NCBI GenBank assembly: GCA_913009315.1
Contig: CAJVZA010000024.1
Coordinates: 1 to 23,149, forward strand
DNA length: 23,149 nt
Origin: an uncultured Hippea sp.
Lineage (GTDB): Bacteria > Campylobacterota_A > Desulfurellia > JAADFJ01
Direction of reading: 5' to 3'
Below, piece after piece: positions 4,267 through 11,954 of the stretch (its first letter is position 1; the number at the start of each line of letters is the position of its first letter). The notes under the pieces were generated by a model. It made no database searches and had not been told where the DNA came from. It worked only from the letters and a program-made list of their open reading frames with translations. A program made the translations under genes and the position numbers.

Positions 4267-4294
4267 AGCATAATGAGACCACTACAATAAGCAA
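4267..4294 (-). promoter_or_regulatory. Probable cas6 promoter formed at the edge of repeat B1
   Basis: Reading leftward, TTGCTT (4294-4289), a 16-base spacer and TATGCT (4272-4267). The -35-like box and spacer are inside repeat B1, while the -10-like box is unique flanking DNA, so the element appears to supply half of the promoter. Hexamers were matched by eye only. Confidence 0.4.
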
Positions 4295-4537
4295 ATTCAC
4301 AGCTTTTTATGAGGTTTTCTATAGGGCAACTCTATTAATTCTAAGCGTTTCAAATTGAGAATTCAAATCCGTCTCATCAAGACGCAAATTGCAGGTAATA
4401 GCAGAGCTATTGTCAAAATTTGCAACGCAGAGGAGATGGATTTGAGACTCAAGATGATCGTTTACGGATTAATAGAGTTGCCCTGAAGACAAGGCAAACT
4501 TTTGAAGGACTAACGGGTTAATTCAAAGAAGTTTAAC
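4273..4537. repeat. Repeat B copy 1 (B1), carrying palindrome A1 inside it
   Basis: Left part 4273-4323 (from ATGAGACC to TTTTCTATA) and right part 4488-4537 (GACAAGGCAAAC to GTTTAAC) match the continuous copy at 11396-11498 at nearly every base. Palindrome A1 plus four bases (TGAA) separates them here. The right part itself folds: AAACTTTTGAA pairs imperfectly with TTCAAAGAAGTTT around the core TAACGGGTTA. Confidence 0.85.
4324..4483. mobile_element. Palindromic element A copy 1 (MITE-like)
   Basis: A 160-bp element with perfect 16-bp terminal inverted repeats (GGGCAACTCTATTAAT and its complement). The two arms pair imperfectly along their whole length to a centre near the AGAGCT at about 4403. 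It has no coding capacity. Related copies lie at 4943-5075, 8898-9053 and 11800-11918. It interrupts repeat B1, and the matching uninterrupted site is at 11396-11498. There is no clear target duplication. I do not recognise the family; a transposase acting in trans is an inference. Confidence 0.8.
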
Positions 4538-4544
4538 TACGTAT

Positions 4545-4672
4545 GAGCCTGTTGATAAATGTTATTGCTGGGAATAGAGTGACGGAACAATCTCAAAAAA
4601 CGTTGATAATAAAGGGATTGCCACGCACCTTTCGGTGCTCGCAATGACAAATAGGAGTTTATCAACAGACTC
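4545..4672. repeat. Palindromic element E with an inner REP-type hairpin
   Basis: A 128-bp segment bounded by 15-bp inverted repeats (GAGCCTGTTGATAAA at 4545-4559 and TTTATCAACAGACTC at 4658-4672, one mismatch). Inside is a REP-like hairpin around GCACCTTTCGGTGC followed by TCGCAATGAC, a form of the CATTGCGAG repeats seen between genes in many bacteria. No coding sequence. Confidence 0.65.
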
Positions 4673-4768
4673 TTTACATTTGACATAACTCCTTGATTTA
4701 GTTTATAAGTAACCGGTGGATTAGTGCATTTCTATGGCAAGACTGCAGGTACAGCGGTAATTTTAACG

Positions 4769-4930
4769 TATCATGGGCATTGCGAGCGGAGTAATTTCAC
4801 CACAGGCAGGATGCCTATGATACACTGAGACTGCTTCGGCCTTCGGCCTCGCAGTGACAGAAGAAGGAAGGCCATTGCTTTGGATATTTCCTCTTCGTCA
4901 TTGCGAGCGCAGCGAAGCAATCTCGTCACA
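4769..4930. repeat. Cluster of CATTGCGAG-type REP palindromes
   Basis: Palindrome TATCATGGGCAT (4769-4780) pairs with ATGCCTATGATA (4811-4822). Next are two opposed REP units: GAGACTGCTTCGGCCTTCGG at 4826 running to GCAGTGAC, and GTCATTGCGAGCGCAGCG at 4896 running to CAATCTC. The paired opposite orientation is like bacterial interspersed mosaic elements. An apparent open frame over this DNA is composed of repeat sequence and is not called as a gene. Confidence 0.65.
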
Positions 4931-4942
4931 GACAATATACCT

Positions 4943-5075
4943 GCACACTCTATGAATTCTAAGCTTTTGAATTGAGAATCCAAAAGCTGCCTTATACATT
5001 AAAATATTCTGCGTAATGGCGCATCTTCAACTTGCAGAACTATTGCCATGATTTGCAGCTGGTTTTGAAGCTCAG
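4943..5075. repeat. Palindromic element A copy 3, degenerate, at the aorD stop codon
   Basis: ACTCTATGAATTCTAAGC and TTGAATTGAGAATCCAAA follow element A1 closely, and the right arm (TGCAG..ATTGCC..TTTGCAG..GCTCAG) follows it loosely. The left arm contains a local hairpin of AGCTTTTG (4962-4969) with CAAAAGCT (4981-4988). The right end overlaps the TGA of aorD (5074-5072). It may act as a transcription stop for the aor operon, although no T-run is obvious. Confidence 0.6.
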
Positions 5076-5302
5076 CCGCCGCCTATAGGAGGAAAAATAC
5101 TTATTGTATCCCCATCGGAAAGCAGGTAATCCATATTTCCTTCTATGCTTTTGCCGTTTACAAGAACTATTTTAGTCAGATCCTTAGGGATTTTCATTTT
5201 ATGAAACAGATCCTCAACTCTTGAATTTTGATCCACTTCACAAACAGCTTCTTTGCCGAAATCATCTCTCAGAGAAGCAAAGAATTTAACCTTTATAAGC
5301 AT
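5072..5302 (-). CDS. aorD: MoaD/ThiS-like sulfur-carrier protein of the aor cluster
   Basis: A 76-residue beta-grasp protein starting MLIKVKFFASLRDD and ending PPIGGG. The terminal Gly-Gly is the site that is adenylated and thiocarboxylated in MoaD/ThiS proteins to supply sulfur for dithiolene formation. A dedicated copy beside a tungstopterin enzyme suggests cofactor supply for AorB. I chose ATG 5302, which overlaps the aorC stop region by 17 bases; a longer in-frame reading upstream is only the shadow of the aorC end. Order and content match aorABCD of Aromatoleum aromaticum, where a MoeA-like aorE follows; here repeat A3 begins at the stop codon instead. Confidence 0.88.
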   Translation of the reverse strand: MLIKVKFFASLRDDFGKEAVCEVDQNSRVEDLFHKMKIPKDLTKIVLVNGKSIEGNMDYLLSDGDTISIFPPIGGG

Positions 5303-6533
5303 TGCCGGCAAAATAGTTGGACAATAAAAATTCATTAGCAAAGGCTGAAGGGTTTTTAAGAAAATCACCCGCTATCTTTTTGCCCTGTCCTATAAGTCCT
5401 TTGATTATTCCTATTCGGTCGTTGTCTCCCAATAAAGAAGCTCCTATTATTATGTCATTTTTTATGCAAAACTGTATGAATCGTCCTTTTGCAGGATCTT
5501 TCCATCTAACAATCTCTGCGTCCGTGTCGTTCCATCTGCCGAAGCTTGCAGCGCTTATCGTACCAAATGTTACCGAATTATAAAGTAAACCTCCTAAATA
5601 ATCACGCTTTTCGCCTGCCATATTGGACCCTGCAACCTCTCCATGCTCTACAGCAGCAGGCCATGTAGGGTATATTGCATTGCCGTTTTCTCTCAGTGCG
5701 GGACATTCGGCGATATCCCCGGCAGCATAAATTGATTCATCGTTCGTTTTCAACTGTTTGTCCACAATAATCGCATCTTTTATTGTTATTCCCGAACTTT
5801 TTAAAAAATCAATATTAGGTTTGATACCTACAGCTATCACGGCCATATCACCGGTTATTTCTTTACCATTTTCGGTCGAAATTGTAATTTTATCACTTTT
5901 TTCATCAATTTCGGTGATTGCGTCGCCGGTTACAAGCGTTACACCATTATTCATAAGCTGTTCTCTGAACATCAATGCGGCAGTTTCAGGAAGCATCTTA
6001 GGGAGAACGGTATCAAGCTTTTCAATTATCGTAATCTTCTTGCCAATTTTATACAGCGCATTTGCAAATATCATACCGATGAAACCGGAACCTATTATGA
6101 CGATTTCATCTGCGCTGCCTAAACGCCCCTTAAACCGTTCGACATCATGGTAATCCCATAAACTGACAACTCTCTCAAAAGAGCTCCACCGTTCGGGAAC
6201 AACAGGAACCGAACCGGTTGCAATAAGCAGTTTGTCGTACCCGATAATCTCTCCGTTATCAAATTCGACCCTTTTTGTATCAGCAAAAAGCTTTGTTGCC
6301 TTGCGGCCGGGAAGTAGTTTTACTCCGAGATCGTTCAAAAATTTCTCATTCCTGTCGTATAACTTCTCCCCGGTTATCTCTGATGTCAAATAGTAGGGAA
6401 TTAGCATTCTGCTGTATGGATGATCATCTGAAAACGCAGCATAAATATCGCTCGAAGGTTTGATCTTTTTTATTGTTCTGACAGCACTCAGGCCGCTTGC
6501 TCCGGTTCCCAATATCAGATATTTCTCAGCCAT
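5286..6533 (-). CDS. aorC: FAD/NAD(P)-dependent oxidoreductase subunit of the aldehyde oxidoreductase
   Basis: A 415-residue two-dinucleotide-domain flavoprotein. The amino-terminal FAD motif is GTGASG (residues 9-14), the NAD motif IIGSGFIG is near residue 148, and the late FAD motif TNDESIYAAGDIAECP is near 263-278. It belongs to the pyridine-nucleotide-disulfide oxidoreductase superfamily but has no redox-active cysteine pair at the usual place, like NADH oxidase or ferredoxin-reductase types. In the Aromatoleum AorABC complex this subunit passes electrons between the ferredoxin subunit and NAD. Its ATG follows the aorB stop with no gap (TAAATG), so coupled translation and a joint complex are likely. 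The assignment rests on gene order and motifs; a free-standing NADH:ferredoxin reductase is the alternative. Confidence 0.85.
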   Translation of the reverse strand: MAEKYLILGTGASGLSAVRTIKKIKPSSDIYAAFSDDHPYSRMLIPYYLTSEITGEKLYDRNEKFLNDLGVKLLPGRKATKLFADTKRVEFDNGEIIGYDKLLIATGSVPVVPERWSSFERVVSLWDYHDVERFKGRLGSADEIVIIGSGFIGMIFANALYKIGKKITIIEKLDTVLPKMLPETAALMFREQLMNNGVTLVTGDAITEIDEKSDKITISTENGKEITGDMAVIAVGIKPNIDFLKSSGITIKDAIIVDKQLKTNDESIYAAGDIAECPALRENGNAIYPTWPAAVEHGEVAGSNMAGEKRDYLGGLLYNSVTFGTISAASFGRWNDTDAEIVRWKDPAKGRFIQFCIKNDIIIGASLLGDNDRIGIIKGLIGQGKKIAGDFLKNPSAFANEFLLSNYFAGNAYKG

Positions 6534-8378
6534 TTATCCTAAACCGAGCTCTTCTATCTTTTCCTTAGATGGAACGGCATTATCATCCCAGCCTCTCAAC
6601 TGGTAATATTCAGGAAGCATTTTGTCAAGTTTATTGACCATTCCTTTTGTGGGTCCTTCGGCTATTTTTCCCTCCAGTATACGTTTCGGAAGAGTGTCTT
6701 CTGCGCCCAGAATACCTGCGCTAAGATTGTAAAGATGTTCCATATTCCAGATTCTCTCACCAATTTTAAGAGCATCATCCACTGAATAATCCGATCCCGC
6801 AGCAGAATTAATCATCGGAACAATTTCAGGAAGCCCAATCGCAAATGTACAGAAAATGCAAAGGCCGCTGCTGTCAACAACGCCGGTTGCATCCTGAAAA
6901 AGTTTTGTAAGAGCTGCCTTGCCCTCGGTTTCTGCAGGATCTGTTTTTTCCGGTATGCCCATAATTTCAGAGGCGATAGTATATGCTCTCAAATGATCGG
7001 CTCCTCTGTTGTTTGTTGCATATGCCAATCCTATTCCCTGTACTGCCCTTGGGTCATAGGCAGGAAACTCCTGTTTTTTAACACCCATAAAAAATTCCGG
7101 ATGACTGAATCGTTTAGAAAGCCGGTACGATCCTTCGGCAAGATAATCTCCGAAACCGCTTCTGTGTCCGGTATCATAAACCATCTTAACAAGCGCCTCA
7201 GCATTACCGAAATTAAGATTCATTCCGGCGGTCTTCTCATCAATTGCGCCGTTCTCATACAGTTCCATAGCACAGGCAAGCGTAGCCCCATAAGAGATTG
7301 GATCCATTCCGAGATCATTGCACAACCAGTTCGCTTTTATCAAAGCATCTATATCATCGATACCGCACAGGGGAGCCATAGCCCATATATTTTCATATTC
7401 AGGGCCTCCGCCTGCGTCCTTCCAGTTTCTTGAGCTTGTGCTGACAATATATTTTTCGGATGCATTATCGGGAAGTTTAGTCACTCTTCCGCAGGCAATA
7501 GTGCATGCAAAACATGCCTTGTTGGCAACAAGCCTTGTGTCAGCTATTGTTTCCCCGCTTATTTTTTCTGCATTTGCAAACTGGGAACTCCTGAAATTGT
7601 AGGAGGGAAGTCCTCCGTATTCATTCATGACATTGACCAAAACAGCCGTCCCGTAAGCAGGAAGCGCCTGACCGGTAACCGGTGCTTCTCTCAATATCTC
7701 TTTTGACTTGTTTATATCTTCGAAAAATCTTTCCGGATTGCTAACGCCTATTCCTTTTGTGCCGCGCACCACTATGGCTTTCAACTTTTTTGAACCCATT
7801 ACGGCACCTACACCGCTTCTGCCGGCGGCACGGTGTTTTTCATTTACAATGCAGCTGAAAAGAACCTTGTTCTCTCCGGCCGGGCCGATAGCTGCAACCC
7901 TTGAATCACTGTCACCTTCAACAGATTTCAAAATATCTTCGGTTTCCCAAACGCCTTTTCCCCAAATCGCTGCGGCATCTTTGATGACAACATCATCATT
8001 ATATATCGACAGATAAACAGGTTTGTCGGAAGCTCCTTCAAAAATGATCATATCATAACCGGCAAATTTGAGCTCTGACCCAAAATAACCGCCAGAATTT
8101 GAACATGCTATCGTTCCTGTCAACGGACTTTTGGTAACAACCATATAACGGGCACCGGTAGGAGCCGAAGTTCCGGTCAACGGTCCGGTTACAAAAATAA
8201 GTTTATTTTCTTTGCCGAGCGGATCTGTTTTAGAATCGGTTTCGCTTATCAGATATTTTGTTGCCAGGCCTCTTCCGCCTATAAACTCTTTTTGCCAATC
8301 TCTGTTGATCTTTTCAGTTTTGACTGTTCCCTCAGACAGGTTTACCCTCAATAATTTATCAGTATATGAATTACTCAC
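6534..8378 (-). CDS. aorB: Tungsten-containing aldehyde:ferredoxin oxidoreductase, catalytic subunit
   Basis: A 614-residue protein of the AOR family, which oxidises aldehydes to carboxylic acids (and can reduce acids) at a tungsten-bis-pterin centre. The amino-terminal AOR domain has GGRGLATKYLI and VTGPLTGTSAPTGARYMVVTKSPLTG patterns. The [4Fe-4S] ligands are Cys289, Cys292 and Cys296 (CFACTIAC), with Cys507 or Cys510 (GLCIFC) as the fourth. This agrees with the layout of Pyrococcus furiosus AOR (288/291/295/494). The pterin-region motif GIGLAYATNNRGADHLRAYT is present. The start overlaps the aorA stop by ATGA. With a ferredoxin subunit, flavoprotein and MoaD beside it, this is an Aromatoleum-type AorABC complex and not a lone archaeal-type AOR. 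The related BamB-type benzoyl-CoA reductase is less likely because the other bam genes are absent. Confidence 0.95.
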   Translation of the reverse strand: MSNSYTDKLLRVNLSEGTVKTEKINRDWQKEFIGGRGLATKYLISETDSKTDPLGKENKLIFVTGPLTGTSAPTGARYMVVTKSPLTGTIACSNSGGYFGSELKFAGYDMIIFEGASDKPVYLSIYNDDVVIKDAAAIWGKGVWETEDILKSVEGDSDSRVAAIGPAGENKVLFSCIVNEKHRAAGRSGVGAVMGSKKLKAIVVRGTKGIGVSNPERFFEDINKSKEILREAPVTGQALPAYGTAVLVNVMNEYGGLPSYNFRSSQFANAEKISGETIADTRLVANKACFACTIACGRVTKLPDNASEKYIVSTSSRNWKDAGGGPEYENIWAMAPLCGIDDIDALIKANWLCNDLGMDPISYGATLACAMELYENGAIDEKTAGMNLNFGNAEALVKMVYDTGHRSGFGDYLAEGSYRLSKRFSHPEFFMGVKKQEFPAYDPRAVQGIGLAYATNNRGADHLRAYTIASEIMGIPEKTDPAETEGKAALTKLFQDATGVVDSSGLCIFCTFAIGLPEIVPMINSAAGSDYSVDDALKIGERIWNMEHLYNLSAGILGAEDTLPKRILEGKIAEGPTKGMVNKLDKMLPEYYQLRGWDDNAVPSKEKIEELGLG

Positions 8379-8866
8379 AGGTTTGCCTCCTTGATGCTGT
8401 AAGCATCAGTCAATCTCAATGCCCATTCACTCATCTTTGGAGTAGATGCGGTATCAACATCTTTATAAAGAATCGCATCAGTAGGGCATACCGTTACACA
8501 TGACGGATCGCCGTCGCATAAATCGCACTTATACACCTTGCCCGTTACGCTGTCGAAACTTATCGTTCCAAACGGACATGCTATAGTGCATACCTTGCAT
8601 CCTACGCAGCTATTTTTATCGACAATCTTGGCTTTGGTTTTTACATCAACTGAAATAGCGGAAATGGGGCAGGAATTCATACACCACGCCTCATCACATT
8701 GAAAACATGCATACGGCACATATCGGGCAATTGCATCAAAAACAAAAGCCTTTATAGCCGATTTTGCAGGATTAAACTGTCCGGTCAAGTGCCAGGAACA
8801 GGCAAGTTCGCACTGCTTGCAGGCAGTACATTTTGATATATCAACCCTTAATGACTTCATGTACAC
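8375..8866 (-). CDS. aorA: Four-cluster ferredoxin-like electron-transfer subunit
   Basis: 163 residues with four cysteine motifs: CTACKQCELAC (from residue 16), CFQCDEAWCMNSCP, CVGCKVCTIACPFG and CDLCDGDPSCVTVCP. The set can hold four [4Fe-4S] clusters, as in the HycB/DmsB/AorA type. There is no twin-arginine or membrane segment, so it is cytoplasmic. It is the first gene of the operon, with ribosome site GAGGAGGT about 5 bases before ATG 8866 and an ATGA overlap with aorB. In the Aromatoleum complex AorA forms an electron-conducting chain between AorB units. Element A2 and a promoter lie directly upstream. Confidence 0.93.
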   Translation of the reverse strand: MYMKSLRVDISKCTACKQCELACSWHLTGQFNPAKSAIKAFVFDAIARYVPYACFQCDEAWCMNSCPISAISVDVKTKAKIVDKNSCVGCKVCTIACPFGTISFDSVTGKVYKCDLCDGDPSCVTVCPTDAILYKDVDTASTPKMSEWALRLTDAYSIKEANL

Positions 8867-8897
8867 CTCCTCAACTTCAAATAGATGTTAATTTTTA

Positions 8898-9053
8898 GGG
8901 TGCTTCTATCAATCATGGGCATTAGATTGAGAATCAGTATCCGCAGGTAAGGTGCAAATTGCAGTCAACAGTTGGCTGTTGCCGGGATTTGCAGTGAAAG
9001 AGGAGGCGAATTTGGAGCTCAGGATTATCATTTATGGATTAATAGAGTTGCCC
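8898..9053. repeat. Palindromic element A copy 2, within the aor leader
   Basis: A 156-bp copy. One end keeps ATTAATAGAGTTGCCC (9038-9053) exactly; the other (AGGGTGCTTCTATCAAT) is degenerate. The middle, GCAAATTGCAG..TTGC..ATTTGCAG, pairs with itself. It lies between the aor promoter (9100-9072) and the aorA ribosome site (about 8880), so it would be transcribed as a long hairpin in the aor mRNA leader. Confidence 0.75.
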
Positions 9054-9071
9054 TTAACTAAAAACTAATTT

Positions 9072-9100
9072 ATTATGTCATACTGCGCAGCTCTTGTCAA
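9072..9100 (-). promoter_or_regulatory. Probable sigma70-type promoter of the aor operon
   Basis: Leftward TTGACA (9100-9095), a 17-base spacer, then CATAAT (9077-9072): a perfect -35 and a near-consensus -10. Transcription would start near 9065 and cross element A2 before aorA. Confidence 0.65.
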
Positions 9101-9224
9101 GCAAAACAGGACAACCGGATCAGCATTTAATTACCATATAAATTAACTCACTTTGCGCACTCTAAGCTGCTCGAAACAGAGCAGGAGAAAGCTGTACGCA
9201 CATATCAGGACAAATTCTGCAACT

Positions 9225-9332
9225 CATTCATTTGAATAAGAGATTGATTTAAGGTATATTCAGGAGTTGTTGCGGTATAATGGTTCGGAAAGAGCCGCAA
9301 TTCGTACTCATGCGTCTCAAGATACAATTTAA
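9225..9332 (+). pseudogene. Remnant of a tyrosine recombinase (integrase) carboxyl end
   Basis: The frame reads HSFE, stop, then EIDLRYIQELLRYNGSERAA and IRTHASQDTI to TAA. It aligns by eye with the common integrase pattern HSFATHLLE..DLRYIQELLGH..TTEIYTHVS. The residue corresponding to the catalytic tyrosine of IYTHVS is arginine here, the GH is changed to RY, and there is a stop after HSFE, so it is inactive. It indicates that the hsdM region was once a mobile island. The rest of 9101-9517 shows nothing else I can support apart from the hsdM ribosome site GGGAGG at about 9503. Confidence 0.6.
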
Positions 9333-9517
9333 TTAAAAGATTTAAGGATATCTTATCGATTCAGAATTCGTCTTATAAATTTGCCTTGCACATTAGAGAG
9401 TATCCTCAAAAAATGGTATAGCGTGAAAGAACAATGAATTTATATAACGCCTGACAGCAAATTAATGAAAATATTTCTGAGTAAGAATTCAGATAATAAT
9501 TCGGGAGGATTGATGTA

Positions 9518-11095
9518 ATGGCCGGGAACAACAATAAAACTAAAGAAGAATCTCTTGAGAAGCAACTGTGGAAAGCAGCAGACAAACTCAGAAAGAATAT
9601 TGATGCTGCTGAATACAAACATATAATCCTGGGGTTGATTTTTCTCAGGTACATCTCGGATGCTTTTGAGGGGTTATACGGTAGATTGCAGGAGGGAAAG
9701 GATGATTACGCCGGAGCCGACCCAGAAGATAGAGACGAATATAAAGCGGAAAATGTCTTTTTTGTTCCTACTGCCGCTCGATGGTCACATCTTCAATCAA
9801 GAGCAAAACAGCCTGAAATTGGTAAAGATATAGATAACGCTATGGACGCCATAGAAAAAGAAAACCCTTCACTCAAGGGCGTTTTACCAAAGGTATATGC
9901 GAGAGGCAACCTCGACCCCACAGGTCTGGGCGGACTGATTGATCTTATCGGCAACATTGCTTTAGATAATGCGAAAGCCGGAAGTACCGATGTTCTCGGT
10001 CACGTTTTTGAGTATTTCCTCGGAGAATTTGCCTTAGCAGAAGGCAAAAAAGGCGGACAGTTCTACACCCCAAGAAGTGTTGTTCAATTACTGGTGAAAA
10101 TGCTTGAACCCTACAATGGCAGAGTGCTTGATCCATGCTGTGGTTCCGGCGGCATGTTTGTTCATTCGGAAAAGTTTGTTGCCGAACATCAGGGAAAGAT
10201 GAATGACATATCTATTTACGGGCAGGAGAGCAATCAGACTACCTGGCGATTGTGCAAAATGAATCTTGCTATCAGGGGCATTGACAGCTCTCAGGTGAAA
10301 TGGAACAATGAAGGCTCCTTCCTGAACGATGCCCACAAAGACCTGAAAGCAGATTATGTGATTGCAAATCCACCCTTCAATGACAGCGACTGGAGCGGAG
10401 ATTTACTTAGAAAAGACGGCAGGTGGAGATACGGCATACCGCCTGCGGGCAACGCCAACTATGCATGGATACAGCACTTTCTTTATCATCTAAGCCCGAG
10501 CGGAATTGCCGGTTTTGTTCTCGCTAAAGGTGCTTTGACTTCCAAAACCTCAGGCGAAGGCAATATCAGAAAGGAGCTTGTCGAAGCCCGATTGGTTGAC
10601 TGTATCGTGAATCTTCCTACGAAACTGTTTTTGAATACGCAAATTCCCGCAAGCCTATGGTTTATTTCCCGGAAACCCTCTCTCAGTCCCTCCCAAAGGG
10701 AGGGAAGTTTCTCTAATCTGGGGGGAGACGAAAGAGAGGGTGAAATACTTTTCATTGATGCCCGAAACATGGGACATCTTATTAACCGCAGAACACGGGA
10801 GCTTTCAAGAGAAGATATCCAAAAAATAGCAGAGACTTATCATAACTGGCGCAATCCAGACGGAGATTATGAAGATATCAAAGGTTTTTGCAATTCTGCC
10901 TCTATTGAAAGGGTGAGGGAACTCGACTATGTGCTGACGCCGGGACGGTATGTGGGCCTGCCGGATGATAAGGATGATTTTGATTTTAAGGAGCGGTTTA
11001 GCAAACTGAAAGCGGAGTTTGAGGGGCAGTTGAAGGAGGAGGCGAAACTTAATCAAAAGATATTGGAAAATCTGGAAAAGGTGAAACCGATATGA
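9518..11095 (+). CDS. hsdM: Type I restriction-modification DNA methyltransferase (M subunit)
   Basis: 525 residues. An amino-terminal helical HsdM_N domain (about 10-145) is followed by an N6-adenine methyltransferase domain. It has the SAM motif DPCCGSGGMF (about 204-213) and catalytic motif IV NPPF (about 283-286). HsdM with HsdS methylates adenine at a split recognition site; with HsdR the complex cuts unmodified DNA. A ribosome site GGAGG lies upstream of ATG 9518 with a somewhat long gap. Residues about 387-408 are an in-frame insertion from a palindromic repeat (10676-10740) between ASLWFISR and ILFIDARNMG. The last bases overlap the start of an hsdS-like stub (ATGA). No hsdR is seen, so this is an orphan methylase or a dead system. 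It is one of the few plus-strand genes in the window. Confidence 0.93.
   Translation: MAGNNNKTKEESLEKQLWKAADKLRKNIDAAEYKHIILGLIFLRYISDAFEGLYGRLQEGKDDYAGADPEDRDEYKAENVFFVPTAARWSHLQSRAKQPEIGKDIDNAMDAIEKENPSLKGVLPKVYARGNLDPTGLGGLIDLIGNIALDNAKAGSTDVLGHVFEYFLGEFALAEGKKGGQFYTPRSVVQLLVKMLEPYNGRVLDPCCGSGGMFVHSEKFVAEHQGKMNDISIYGQESNQTTWRLCKMNLAIRGIDSSQVKWNNEGSFLNDAHKDLKADYVIANPPFNDSDWSGDLLRKDGRWRYGIPPAGNANYAWIQHFLYHLSPSGIAGFVLAKGALTSKTSGEGNIRKELVEARLVDCIVNLPTKLFLNTQIPASLWFISRKPSLSPSQREGSFSNLGGDEREGEILFIDARNMGHLINRRTRELSREDIQKIAETYHNWRNPDGDYEDIKGFCNSASIERVRELDYVLTPGRYVGLPDDKDDFDFKERFSKLKAEFEGQLKEEAKLNQKILENLEKVKPI
10676..10740. repeat. REP-like palindrome inserted in frame inside hsdM
   Basis: 65 bp from CCCTCTCTC (10676) to GAGAGGG (10740), with an inner hairpin CCCTCCC-AAA-GGGAGGG. 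The translated insert contains SLSPSQREGSF, unlike the surrounding HsdM sequence but typical of frames read through GGGAGGG-type intergenic repeats. The reading frame is kept. Confidence 0.65.
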
Positions 11096-11211
11096 ATGAG
11101 AGGTTCGGAAAAAACAAGAAAGTAAAACAAGAATATTTATATTTTACTTTGGGAGCTAAAAGTAAAACAAGAATATTTATATTTTATTTTGGGAGCACCT
11201 ATGGATATTAA
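11092..11211 (+). pseudogene. hsdS-position stub of 39 codons
   Basis: ATG 11092 overlaps the hsdM stop as ATGA, the usual coupling for hsdS. Only MNERFGKNKKVKQEYLYF and a short repeat-encoded tail follow before TAA at 11211. There is no target recognition domain. Its second part lies in a 38-bp direct repeat. Most likely hsdS was deleted when the fic fragment and repeats arrived. I do not recognise the sequence itself; the assignment is by position. Confidence 0.35.
11119..11196 (+). repeat. 38-bp tandem duplication carrying a ribosome-binding site
   Basis: Two copies (11119-11156 and 11159-11196, period 40) differ at one base. Each runs from AAGTAAAACAAGAATA to TTTGGGAGC. The GGGAG of copy 2 is 5 bases before the fic ATG at 11201; copy 1 has the same site with no start codon after it. 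Confidence 0.85.
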
Positions 11212-11437
11212 GAAATTCAGAGCAGGTTCATACAAAAAGGGTTATAAATATCGCTGCTTCTTGCCTGAAAAAATCAACCACTCATTTTTCTGGACAGATG
11301 GGATTATCAACGAATTGCTGGAAAAAGCCTCATTGAAACTGGGGGAACTGAATTCCTTTTCCCGGTTTGTGCCGGATACTGACATGTTTATCATTATGAG
11401 ACCACTGCACAATAAGCAGATTCACAGCTTTTTATGA
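11201..11437 (+). pseudogene. Fic-family protein, amino-terminal fragment truncated by repeat B2
   Basis: ATG 11201 follows GGGAG. The first 66 residues (FRAGSYKKGYKYRCFLPEKI, then LGELNSF and VPDTDMFIIM) match the amino-terminal Fic_N region that precedes the catalytic Fic domain, which transfers AMP or similar groups to proteins. At 11396 the reading enters repeat B2 (ATGAGACC) and ends 13 residues later. The HPFx(D/E)GNGR active-site motif is absent, so the product would be inactive. The upstream alternative start TTG 11189 is less likely because it lies before the ribosome site. Confidence 0.75.
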
Positions 11438-11498
11438 GGTTTTCTATAGACAAGGCAAACTTCTGAAGGACTAACGGGTTAATTCAAAGAAGTTTAAC
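11396..11498. repeat. Repeat B copy 2 (B2), uninterrupted form
   Basis: About 103 bp from ATGAGACCACTGCACAA through GAGGTTTTCTATAGACAAGG to AGAAGTTTAAC. It is nearly identical to B1 (4273-4537) but has no element A between TTTTCTATA and GACAAGG, so it stands as the empty site. Its left end is the breakpoint of the fic gene. The right half folds as AAACTTCTGAA / TTCAAAGAAGTTT. Confidence 0.85.
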
Positions 11499-11506
11499 GA
11501 AGTATA

Positions 11507-11662
11507 TGGGAAACCTCATAAAGCCCGCAGGGAAGTCAAATAAAGGGCAATCTTCAGGAAATTAAAATTCTCAAACTAACCGGTTAGTACCTCAAATTTT
11601 AATTTCTAAATCTCACCCTTTCTTTGACTTCTGTGAATCTGTTTACTGTGCAGTGGTCTCAT
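11507..11662 (-). repeat. Repeat B copy 3 (B3), inverted and split by element D
   Basis: Read on the minus strand, ATGAGACCACTGCACAG (from 11662) to GATTCACAG stops at 11632, and resumes as GCTTTATGAGGTTTCCC at 11523-11507 after element D. It faces B2, so the pair forms a large inverted repeat. A minus-strand open stretch entering B3 (ending FDFLTIMRPLH) covers 11663-11764; I do not recognise it and do not call it a gene. Confidence 0.7.
11532..11631. mobile_element. Nested palindromic element D
   Basis: 100 bp with 16-bp terminal inverted repeats (GAAGTCAAATAAAGGG and CCCTTTCTTTGACTTC, one mismatch). An inner stem GAAATTAAAATT / AATTTTAATTTC and the perfect core CTAACCGGTTAG (11576-11587) sit inside, so the element is palindromic at three levels. 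It interrupts B3. As RNA it would form a strong hairpin between the converging fic fragment and lolA operon and could end transcription from both sides. Confidence 0.7.
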
Positions 11663-11764
11663 TATAGTAAGAAAGTCAAATTCTTCAAATTCCAAAAATT
11701 GGGCGTGTATCACGTCGCCATCTTCATCGGAAACAGCCTGATATTCAGGTGAAGGAAAGATATT

Positions 11765-11806
11765 ACAGTGAAGCCGTGCCGATATGCCTATTGCACTATG
11801 GTCTCG
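11765..11806 (-). repeat. Partial, diverged B copy (B5)
   Basis: Minus strand CGAGACCATAGTGCAATAGG to GCTTCACTG resembles the GAGACC..TGCA..ATAAGC..CACAGC pattern of B1 and B2. It joins directly to the truncated end of A4. The similarity is moderate. Confidence 0.45.
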
Positions 11807-11918
11807 TAAACGGATATCGAACATACCGCAATAATCTTTCCGTTGCCTGTGCAATCTGTGCCTTATCGACGGATTTGGGTTTTCGGTTTCAAACGCTCAG
11901 AATTAACAGAGCCGCCCT
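11800..11918 (-). repeat. Palindromic element A copy 4, diverged and truncated
   Basis: Minus strand AGGGCGGCTCTGTTAATTCT, GAGCGTTTGAAACC, CAAATCCGTC and a GGCAACGG..TTATTGC centre follow A1 step by step at roughly three-quarters identity by eye. The right arm breaks off at about CGTTTACG, where B5 begins. It stands next to B4 across the same junction as in B1/A1 (GAGGTTTTC then AGGGC). Confidence 0.6.
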
Positions 11919-11954
11919 GCGGAAAACCTCGTAAAAAGCGCGCGACGGTCTCAT
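11919..11954 (-). repeat. B-type repeat (B4) containing the lolA stop codon
   Basis: Minus strand ATGAGACCGTCGCGCG then CTTTTTACGAGGTTTTC matches the left part of B1 and B2 with a shorter middle. The TGA of lolA (11953-11951) is the TGA of this repeat. Confidence 0.65.

What the first reader, a model, noticed from the sequence alone, without database searches (positions are those of the whole stretch)
4273..11498. Filled and empty site of an unrecognised palindromic element within one window
Repeat B1 (4273-4537) and repeat B2 (11396-11498) agree at nearly every base on both sides, but B1 has a 160-bp palindrome (A1, 4324-4483, plus TGAA) between TTTTCTATA and GACAAGG, where B2 is continuous. 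This is direct evidence that element A moved into, or left, a defined point in B. Against a simple recent insertion, the diverged A4/B4 pair at 11800-11954 shows the same A-in-B junction, so precise loss from B2 is also possible.
Basis: seen in the sequence. Interest (0 to 1): 0.75.

Follow-up and report, generated by a model that had tools for sequence, protein, structure and literature searches.

The report
One mini-transposon nested inside another
Two families of tiny, gene-less mobile DNA repeats sit one inside the other: the small hairpin repeat jumped into the larger one long ago and has since been copied around mainly as its passenger, which is a well-resolved but fairly ordinary case of nested bacterial mini-transposons.

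Summary
Window 4274-4544 (B1) and 11397-11661 (B2) are copies of one repeat family, and B1 carries a 160-bp palindrome (A1, 4324-4483, plus TGAA) exactly where B2 is continuous.

[quoted passage not shown] B is a ~265-bp IS5-type MITE: ends TGAGACCACTGCA, 3-bp target duplication (longest direct repeat 5 bp, ATWAT) checked against empty sites, and the same tip next to a DUF772 IS5-like transposase fragment. A is a separate MITE, ~156-164 bp: terminal repeats GRGYRMYTCTRTTAATYC, 4-bp target duplication checked against one empty site. The A end motif occurs 125 times in this genome and 87 times in a congener; a third genome of the genus has 6, against 3 control matches.

B1 and B2 are not one locus before and after. 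A entered B before the two A-bearing species split. Filled and empty B copies now coexist as parallel subfamilies (site 1: 13 filled/22 empty here, ~10/20 in the congener, 0/2 in the A-less genome), and an A-laden B moved as a unit after the split. A also occupies a second point in B.

No transposase was found for A. New member of a known kind.

The parts
4274..4323 (+). B1, left part of a B-family MITE (left terminal repeat TGAGACCACT.. up to insertion point 1); possible target duplication TAA at 4271-4273
4324..4483 (+). A1: 160-bp palindromic MITE nested in B1 at site 1
4484..4487 (+). TGAA, right-hand target-duplication remnant of A1 (TTAA in the sister species)
4488..4544 (+). B1, continuation after A1 (GACAAGGCAAAC...); right half missing
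4545..4672 (+). D: third small inverted-repeat element (GAGCCTGTTGATAAA...TTTATCAACAGACTC) interrupting B1; a complete case of D inside B with an ATAC duplication is in L008
8898..9057 (+). Old, B-free copy of A, shared with the sister species at the same locus
11394..11396 (+). TTA, left target duplication of B2 (ATTAT if counted as 5 bp)
   Evidence: rule verified on L032/L103 and L007/L178/L179
11397..11661 (+). B2: complete A-free B-family MITE; insertion point 1 lies at 11448/11449, point 2 at about 11570-11575
11662..11664 (+). TTA, right target duplication of B2
11800..11954 (-). A4/B4: ancient, decayed A-in-B (site 1) copy, orthologous in sister genome G001

Best explanation
B and A are two unrelated MITE families, moved in trans by DDE transposases. 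B (about 265 bp, IS5-type ends, 3-bp duplication) is cut and inserted by an IS5-family transposase of the DUF772/DDE_Tnp_1 kind. A (about 156-164 bp, palindromic, 4-bp TTAA/TAAA/CAAA-like duplication) was moved by a different transposase, which was not found and may be extinct here. In the common ancestor of G000 and G001, after divergence from G002, A inserted into B at site 1 and at site 2. Since then A has spread mostly as a passenger of B, giving parallel A-filled and A-free B subfamilies, further mixed by recombination or gene conversion between copies. Shown: both families, their ends, the target duplications by empty sites, two A positions in B, the pre-split age of A-in-B, and a post-split insertion of an A-laden B. 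Inferred: identity of the transposases, the A-free ancestor of B, and gene conversion as cause of same-locus differences.
For: A dispersed: 51 blastn matches; end-motif counts G000 125, G001 87, G002 6, controls 3, 2, 3. A target duplication: L027 CTAT-TAAA-[A]-TAAA-CTC against G002 CTAT-TAAA-TTC; over 22 B-free copies the 4-mers on the two sides match directly at 61/88 positions, permutation mean 48.4, p=0.00025, inverted matching not raised, p=0.38. Exact pairs are TTTA in L027 and L071, TAAA in L133, CAAA in L147. B target duplication: L032 against G001 empty site; A-laden B in L007 against empty sites in G001 and G002, ACC-ATAAT-TTA. B tip next to a DUF772/DDE_Tnp_1 ORF; IS5-family ends GAGACCATTGCA and GAGACCTTTGCA in PMC4596501. 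A-in-B shared by both species. All nine B-free A copies whose locus could be placed in G001 are shared. Site-1 states. A and its B flanks diverge to a similar degree.
Against: No complete autonomous element with A ends or B ends was found; the IS5-like ORF beside the B tip is truncated. At site 1 the two flanking 4-mers of A differ (TATA against TTAA/TGAA), as they do at site 2 (TATA/TACA against TTAA), so target duplication there is only inferred. At two orthologous B loci (L170/L168 and L037/L073) A is present in G001 and absent in G000 with the standard family junction, so precise loss cannot be excluded. The 4-mers were read off by hand after profile alignment, and exact pairs alone are not significant (p=0.12). 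The B-like copies of G002 are diverged, so the polarity rests on few copies.
Confidence: 0.85

Rival explanations
1. A was an original part of B, and the A-free copies arose by precise loss of A.
For: At two orthologous loci A is present in G001 and absent in G000; hybrid copies joining site-1 left flank, A and site-2 right flank occur (L066, L146, L131).
Against: G002 has B-like copies with an uninterrupted site 1 and no detectable A. Diverged A-free B copies (L036, L037) are continuous at both points. A has its own ends, its own target duplication and many B-free sites.
Confidence: 0.1
2. Same-locus differences in A reflect fresh A insertions into resident B copies in G001.
For: L168 carries a 79-bp A exactly at site 1 where orthologous L170 is continuous.
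Against: The junction carries the family's TGAA, not a new copy of the target's TATA, so the A there is probably identical by descent with other filled copies; gene conversion or loss explains it better. All nine tested B-free A copies are old and shared.
Confidence: 0.05
3. A is a REP/IS200-IS605-type palindrome moved by a Y1 or REP-associated tyrosine transposase.
For: Y1 transposase genes exist in G000 (6 matches) and G001 (1 match); A is a strong hairpin.
Against: Y1 elements insert without target duplication (established knowledge), whereas A shows a 4-bp one. The Y1 loci in this genome have other ends (GGGTCAGGTCTTCATT, CGGGGTCGTGTCTTT).
Confidence: 0.04
4. A is kept as a structured RNA or regulatory hairpin rather than as a transposon.
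For: Full-length hairpin at -76.7 kcal/mol.
Against: Arms of old copies do not covary significantly (p=0.058), old copies decay and truncate freely, and no Rfam family matches.
Confidence: 0.04

Closest known systems
IS5-family MITEs with GAGACC.. ends: BrickBuilt of Porphyromonas gingivalis, and the Neisseria ATR element whose proposed parent is ISNme1 (PMC4596501)
   Same: Ends GAGACCNNNGCA-like, no coding capacity, many copies, short target duplication; B matches on all.
   Different: No sequence relationship beyond the tips was tested; B contains long internal inverted repeats and carries A and D.
ERIC, Correia and RUP repeats (IS630-type palindromic MITEs; characteristics from memory)
   Same: A has a similar size (about 100-170 bp), a palindrome with full-length hairpin potential, and high copy number.
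   Different: Those duplicate TA; A duplicates 4 bp. Ends differ, and no IS630 transposase was linked to A (IS630 families were not searched).
Nested insertion of mobile elements in general
   Same: One element inside another and hitchhiking with it.
   Different: Here both partners are tiny non-autonomous elements, and the nest has two A positions plus a third element D.

Membership tests
MITE (element A) | Short, non-coding, paired terminal inverted repeats, many dispersed copies | tested here: met
MITE (element A) | Target-site duplication | tested here: met
   4 bp; one clean empty site and a permutation test
MITE (element A) | Shares ends with an autonomous element | tested here: inconclusive
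   No partner found among PF01609, PF05598 or Y1 loci, or beside lone A ends; other transposase families were not searched
IS5-family MITE (element B) | IS5-type terminal repeats (GAGACCNNTGCA) | tested here: met
IS5-family MITE (element B) | Short target duplication | tested here: met
   3 bp (up to 5 bp counted as direct repeat); empty sites
IS5-family MITE (element B) | IS5-family transposase gene with the same ends in the genome | tested here: inconclusive
   One B-like tip lies next to a truncated DUF772/DDE_Tnp_1 ORF in L093; the other end is lost
REP / REP-associated Y1 palindromes (element A) | No target duplication; insertion next to a fixed short target | tested here: not met
   4-bp duplication
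IS630-type MITE such as ERIC or Correia (element A) | TA target duplication | tested here: not met
   Direct repeat is 4 bp: TAAA, TTTA or CAAA

The most novel reading that the evidence does not exclude
A belongs to a MITE family of an undescribed IS group that targets TTAA-like 4-mers and repeatedly enters B; B acts as a preferred landing platform that shuttles A (and D) through the genome.
Probability: 0.15. Interest if true: 0.4.

Novelty: new member of a known kind. Interest (0 to 1): 0.27.

Why it matters
It gives a dated, outgroup-polarised example of bacterial mini-transposons nesting and hitchhiking. It also warns that a with/without pair of repeat copies inside one window need not be a before/after pair of a single insertion. 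The two families are among the most abundant intergenic repeats of these genomes and break the assembly: many contigs end inside B.

Tried and rejected
Looked for an autonomous partner of A in three ways: PF01609, PF05598 and PF01797 searches, inspection of lone A ends, and the A end motif across all 25 genomes of the class. None was found; A is confined to two species. Tried viral contigs for A core and B tip: no match. Rejected Rfam RNA families. Rejected arm covariation as evidence of a selected RNA. Two papers read for nested MITEs gave no case with A's ends.

Full report
What is there. The window is contig 24 of a 1.74-Mb draft genome (G000, 87.6% complete). A same-genus draft, G001, holds A too; its record is titled Campylobacterota bacterium isolate M_MaxBin.016 (loci identical to G001 loci). 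A third same-genus genome, G002, holds no A by sequence search.

Element B. Complete copies (L031-L034, L036, L037) begin TGAGACCACTGCACAATAAGC and end with the reverse complement. Flanks show a direct repeat ATWAT. Because the outer A and T stay nearly constant while the middle three bases vary (TAA, TTA, TGA, TCA, ATA, CTG), I read this as a 3-bp duplication with TGAGACC as the tip; 5 bp is the longest reading. Empty sites confirm it: L032 against G001 (CA-ATAAT-GC) and the A-laden copy in L007, next to what looks like a tRNA gene, against both G001 and G002 (ACC-ATAAT-TTA in G002). The same 18-21-bp tip lies upstream of a truncated ORF with DUF772 (E=2e-22) and a weak DDE_Tnp_1 match, in L093. 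Published IS5-family ends are of this type (PMC4596501).

Element A. A gives 51 blastn matches in G000. Its end motif gives 125, 87 and 6 matches in G000, G001 and G002, against 3, 2 and 3 for a reversed control, and no excess in the other genomes of the class. Besides the 156-164-bp form there are 72-75-bp forms with the same ends, and copies interrupted by another short palindrome (CCTGTCTGCGTGCGACGCACAGGCAGG). The target duplication is 4 bp: in L027, shared by G000 and G001, TAAA stands on both sides, and G002 has a single TAAA at the orthologous place. Over 22 B-free copies, left and right 4-mers match directly more than when reshuffled among copies (61 of 88 against 48.4, p=0.00025), while inverted matching is not raised. 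The 4-mers were read by hand, so this is supporting evidence only.

How A and B are related in time. In G000, the copies of A most like A1 (84% identity or more over most of the length) lie in B. All nine B-free A copies that could be placed in G001 are shared between the two species. So A's own movement is mostly old. A-in-B is also older than the species split: both species have A at site 1 and at site 2, and the decayed A4/B4 of the window is orthologous in G001. G002 has two B-like copies with a continuous site 1, which makes A-free the likely ancestral state. Site-1 tally: G000 13 filled and 22 empty; G001 about 10 filled, 20 empty and one unclear; G002 2 empty. B itself stayed active after the split: B in L032 and L036 is absent in G001, and an A-laden B (L007) is absent in both G001 and G002. 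A and its B flanks diverge to a similar degree across A-laden copies (A 89-98%, flanks 91-100%), as expected for co-mobilisation.

Same-locus pairs. Two orthologous B loci differ in A: L170 (empty) against L168 (79-bp A at site 1), and L037 (empty) against L073 (A at site 2). In L168 the junction is the family's TGAA, not a fresh copy of the target, so independent insertion is unlikely; gene conversion between dispersed B copies or loss of A fits better. Hybrid copies joining the site-1 left flank, A, and the site-2 right flank (L066, L131, L146) also point to recombination through A.

Mechanism and limits. Trans-mobilisation of B by an IS5-type transposase is well supported; of A by an unknown DDE transposase, inferred. 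Neither a Y1 nor a TA-duplicating model fits. No RNA role is indicated: no Rfam match, and old copies show no significant arm covariation (p=0.058). The genomes are drafts and many contigs end inside B, so counts are lower bounds; the window loci and L003, L007, L027 and L032 are internal to contigs.

Verdict. Confirmed observation, interpretation partly right, ordinary in kind: a new pair of nested MITE families with a good outgroup-polarised history.

Noticed in passing
window 4545-4672; L008 about 1737-1863; L162: A third small inverted-repeat element D (GAGCCTGTTGA ends, like the IS elements in L083/L086) sits inside B copies; in L008 it is flanked by ATAC on both sides, a clean 4-bp duplication.
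   Followed up: partly
L011, L017, L019, L140, L070, L073: A short palindrome CCTGTCTGCGTGCGACGCACAGGCAGG or variants is inserted inside A copies, a further level of nesting.
   Followed up: partly
L057 end, L060 start, L082 about 60-120: Illumina adapter sequence (AGATCGGAAGAGC / GCTCTTCCGATCT) is left at contig ends of the draft genome, next to B copies in two of the three cases.
   Followed up: no
window 4895-4935: TCATTGCGAGCGCAGCGAAGCAATCTCGTCA, a REP-like repeat, lies downstream of B1 next to a partial A copy at 4947.
   Followed up: no
G000:C21:14041-14468 (L007): An A-laden B copy inserted a few bases downstream of what looks like a tRNA gene, after the species split.
   Followed up: yes
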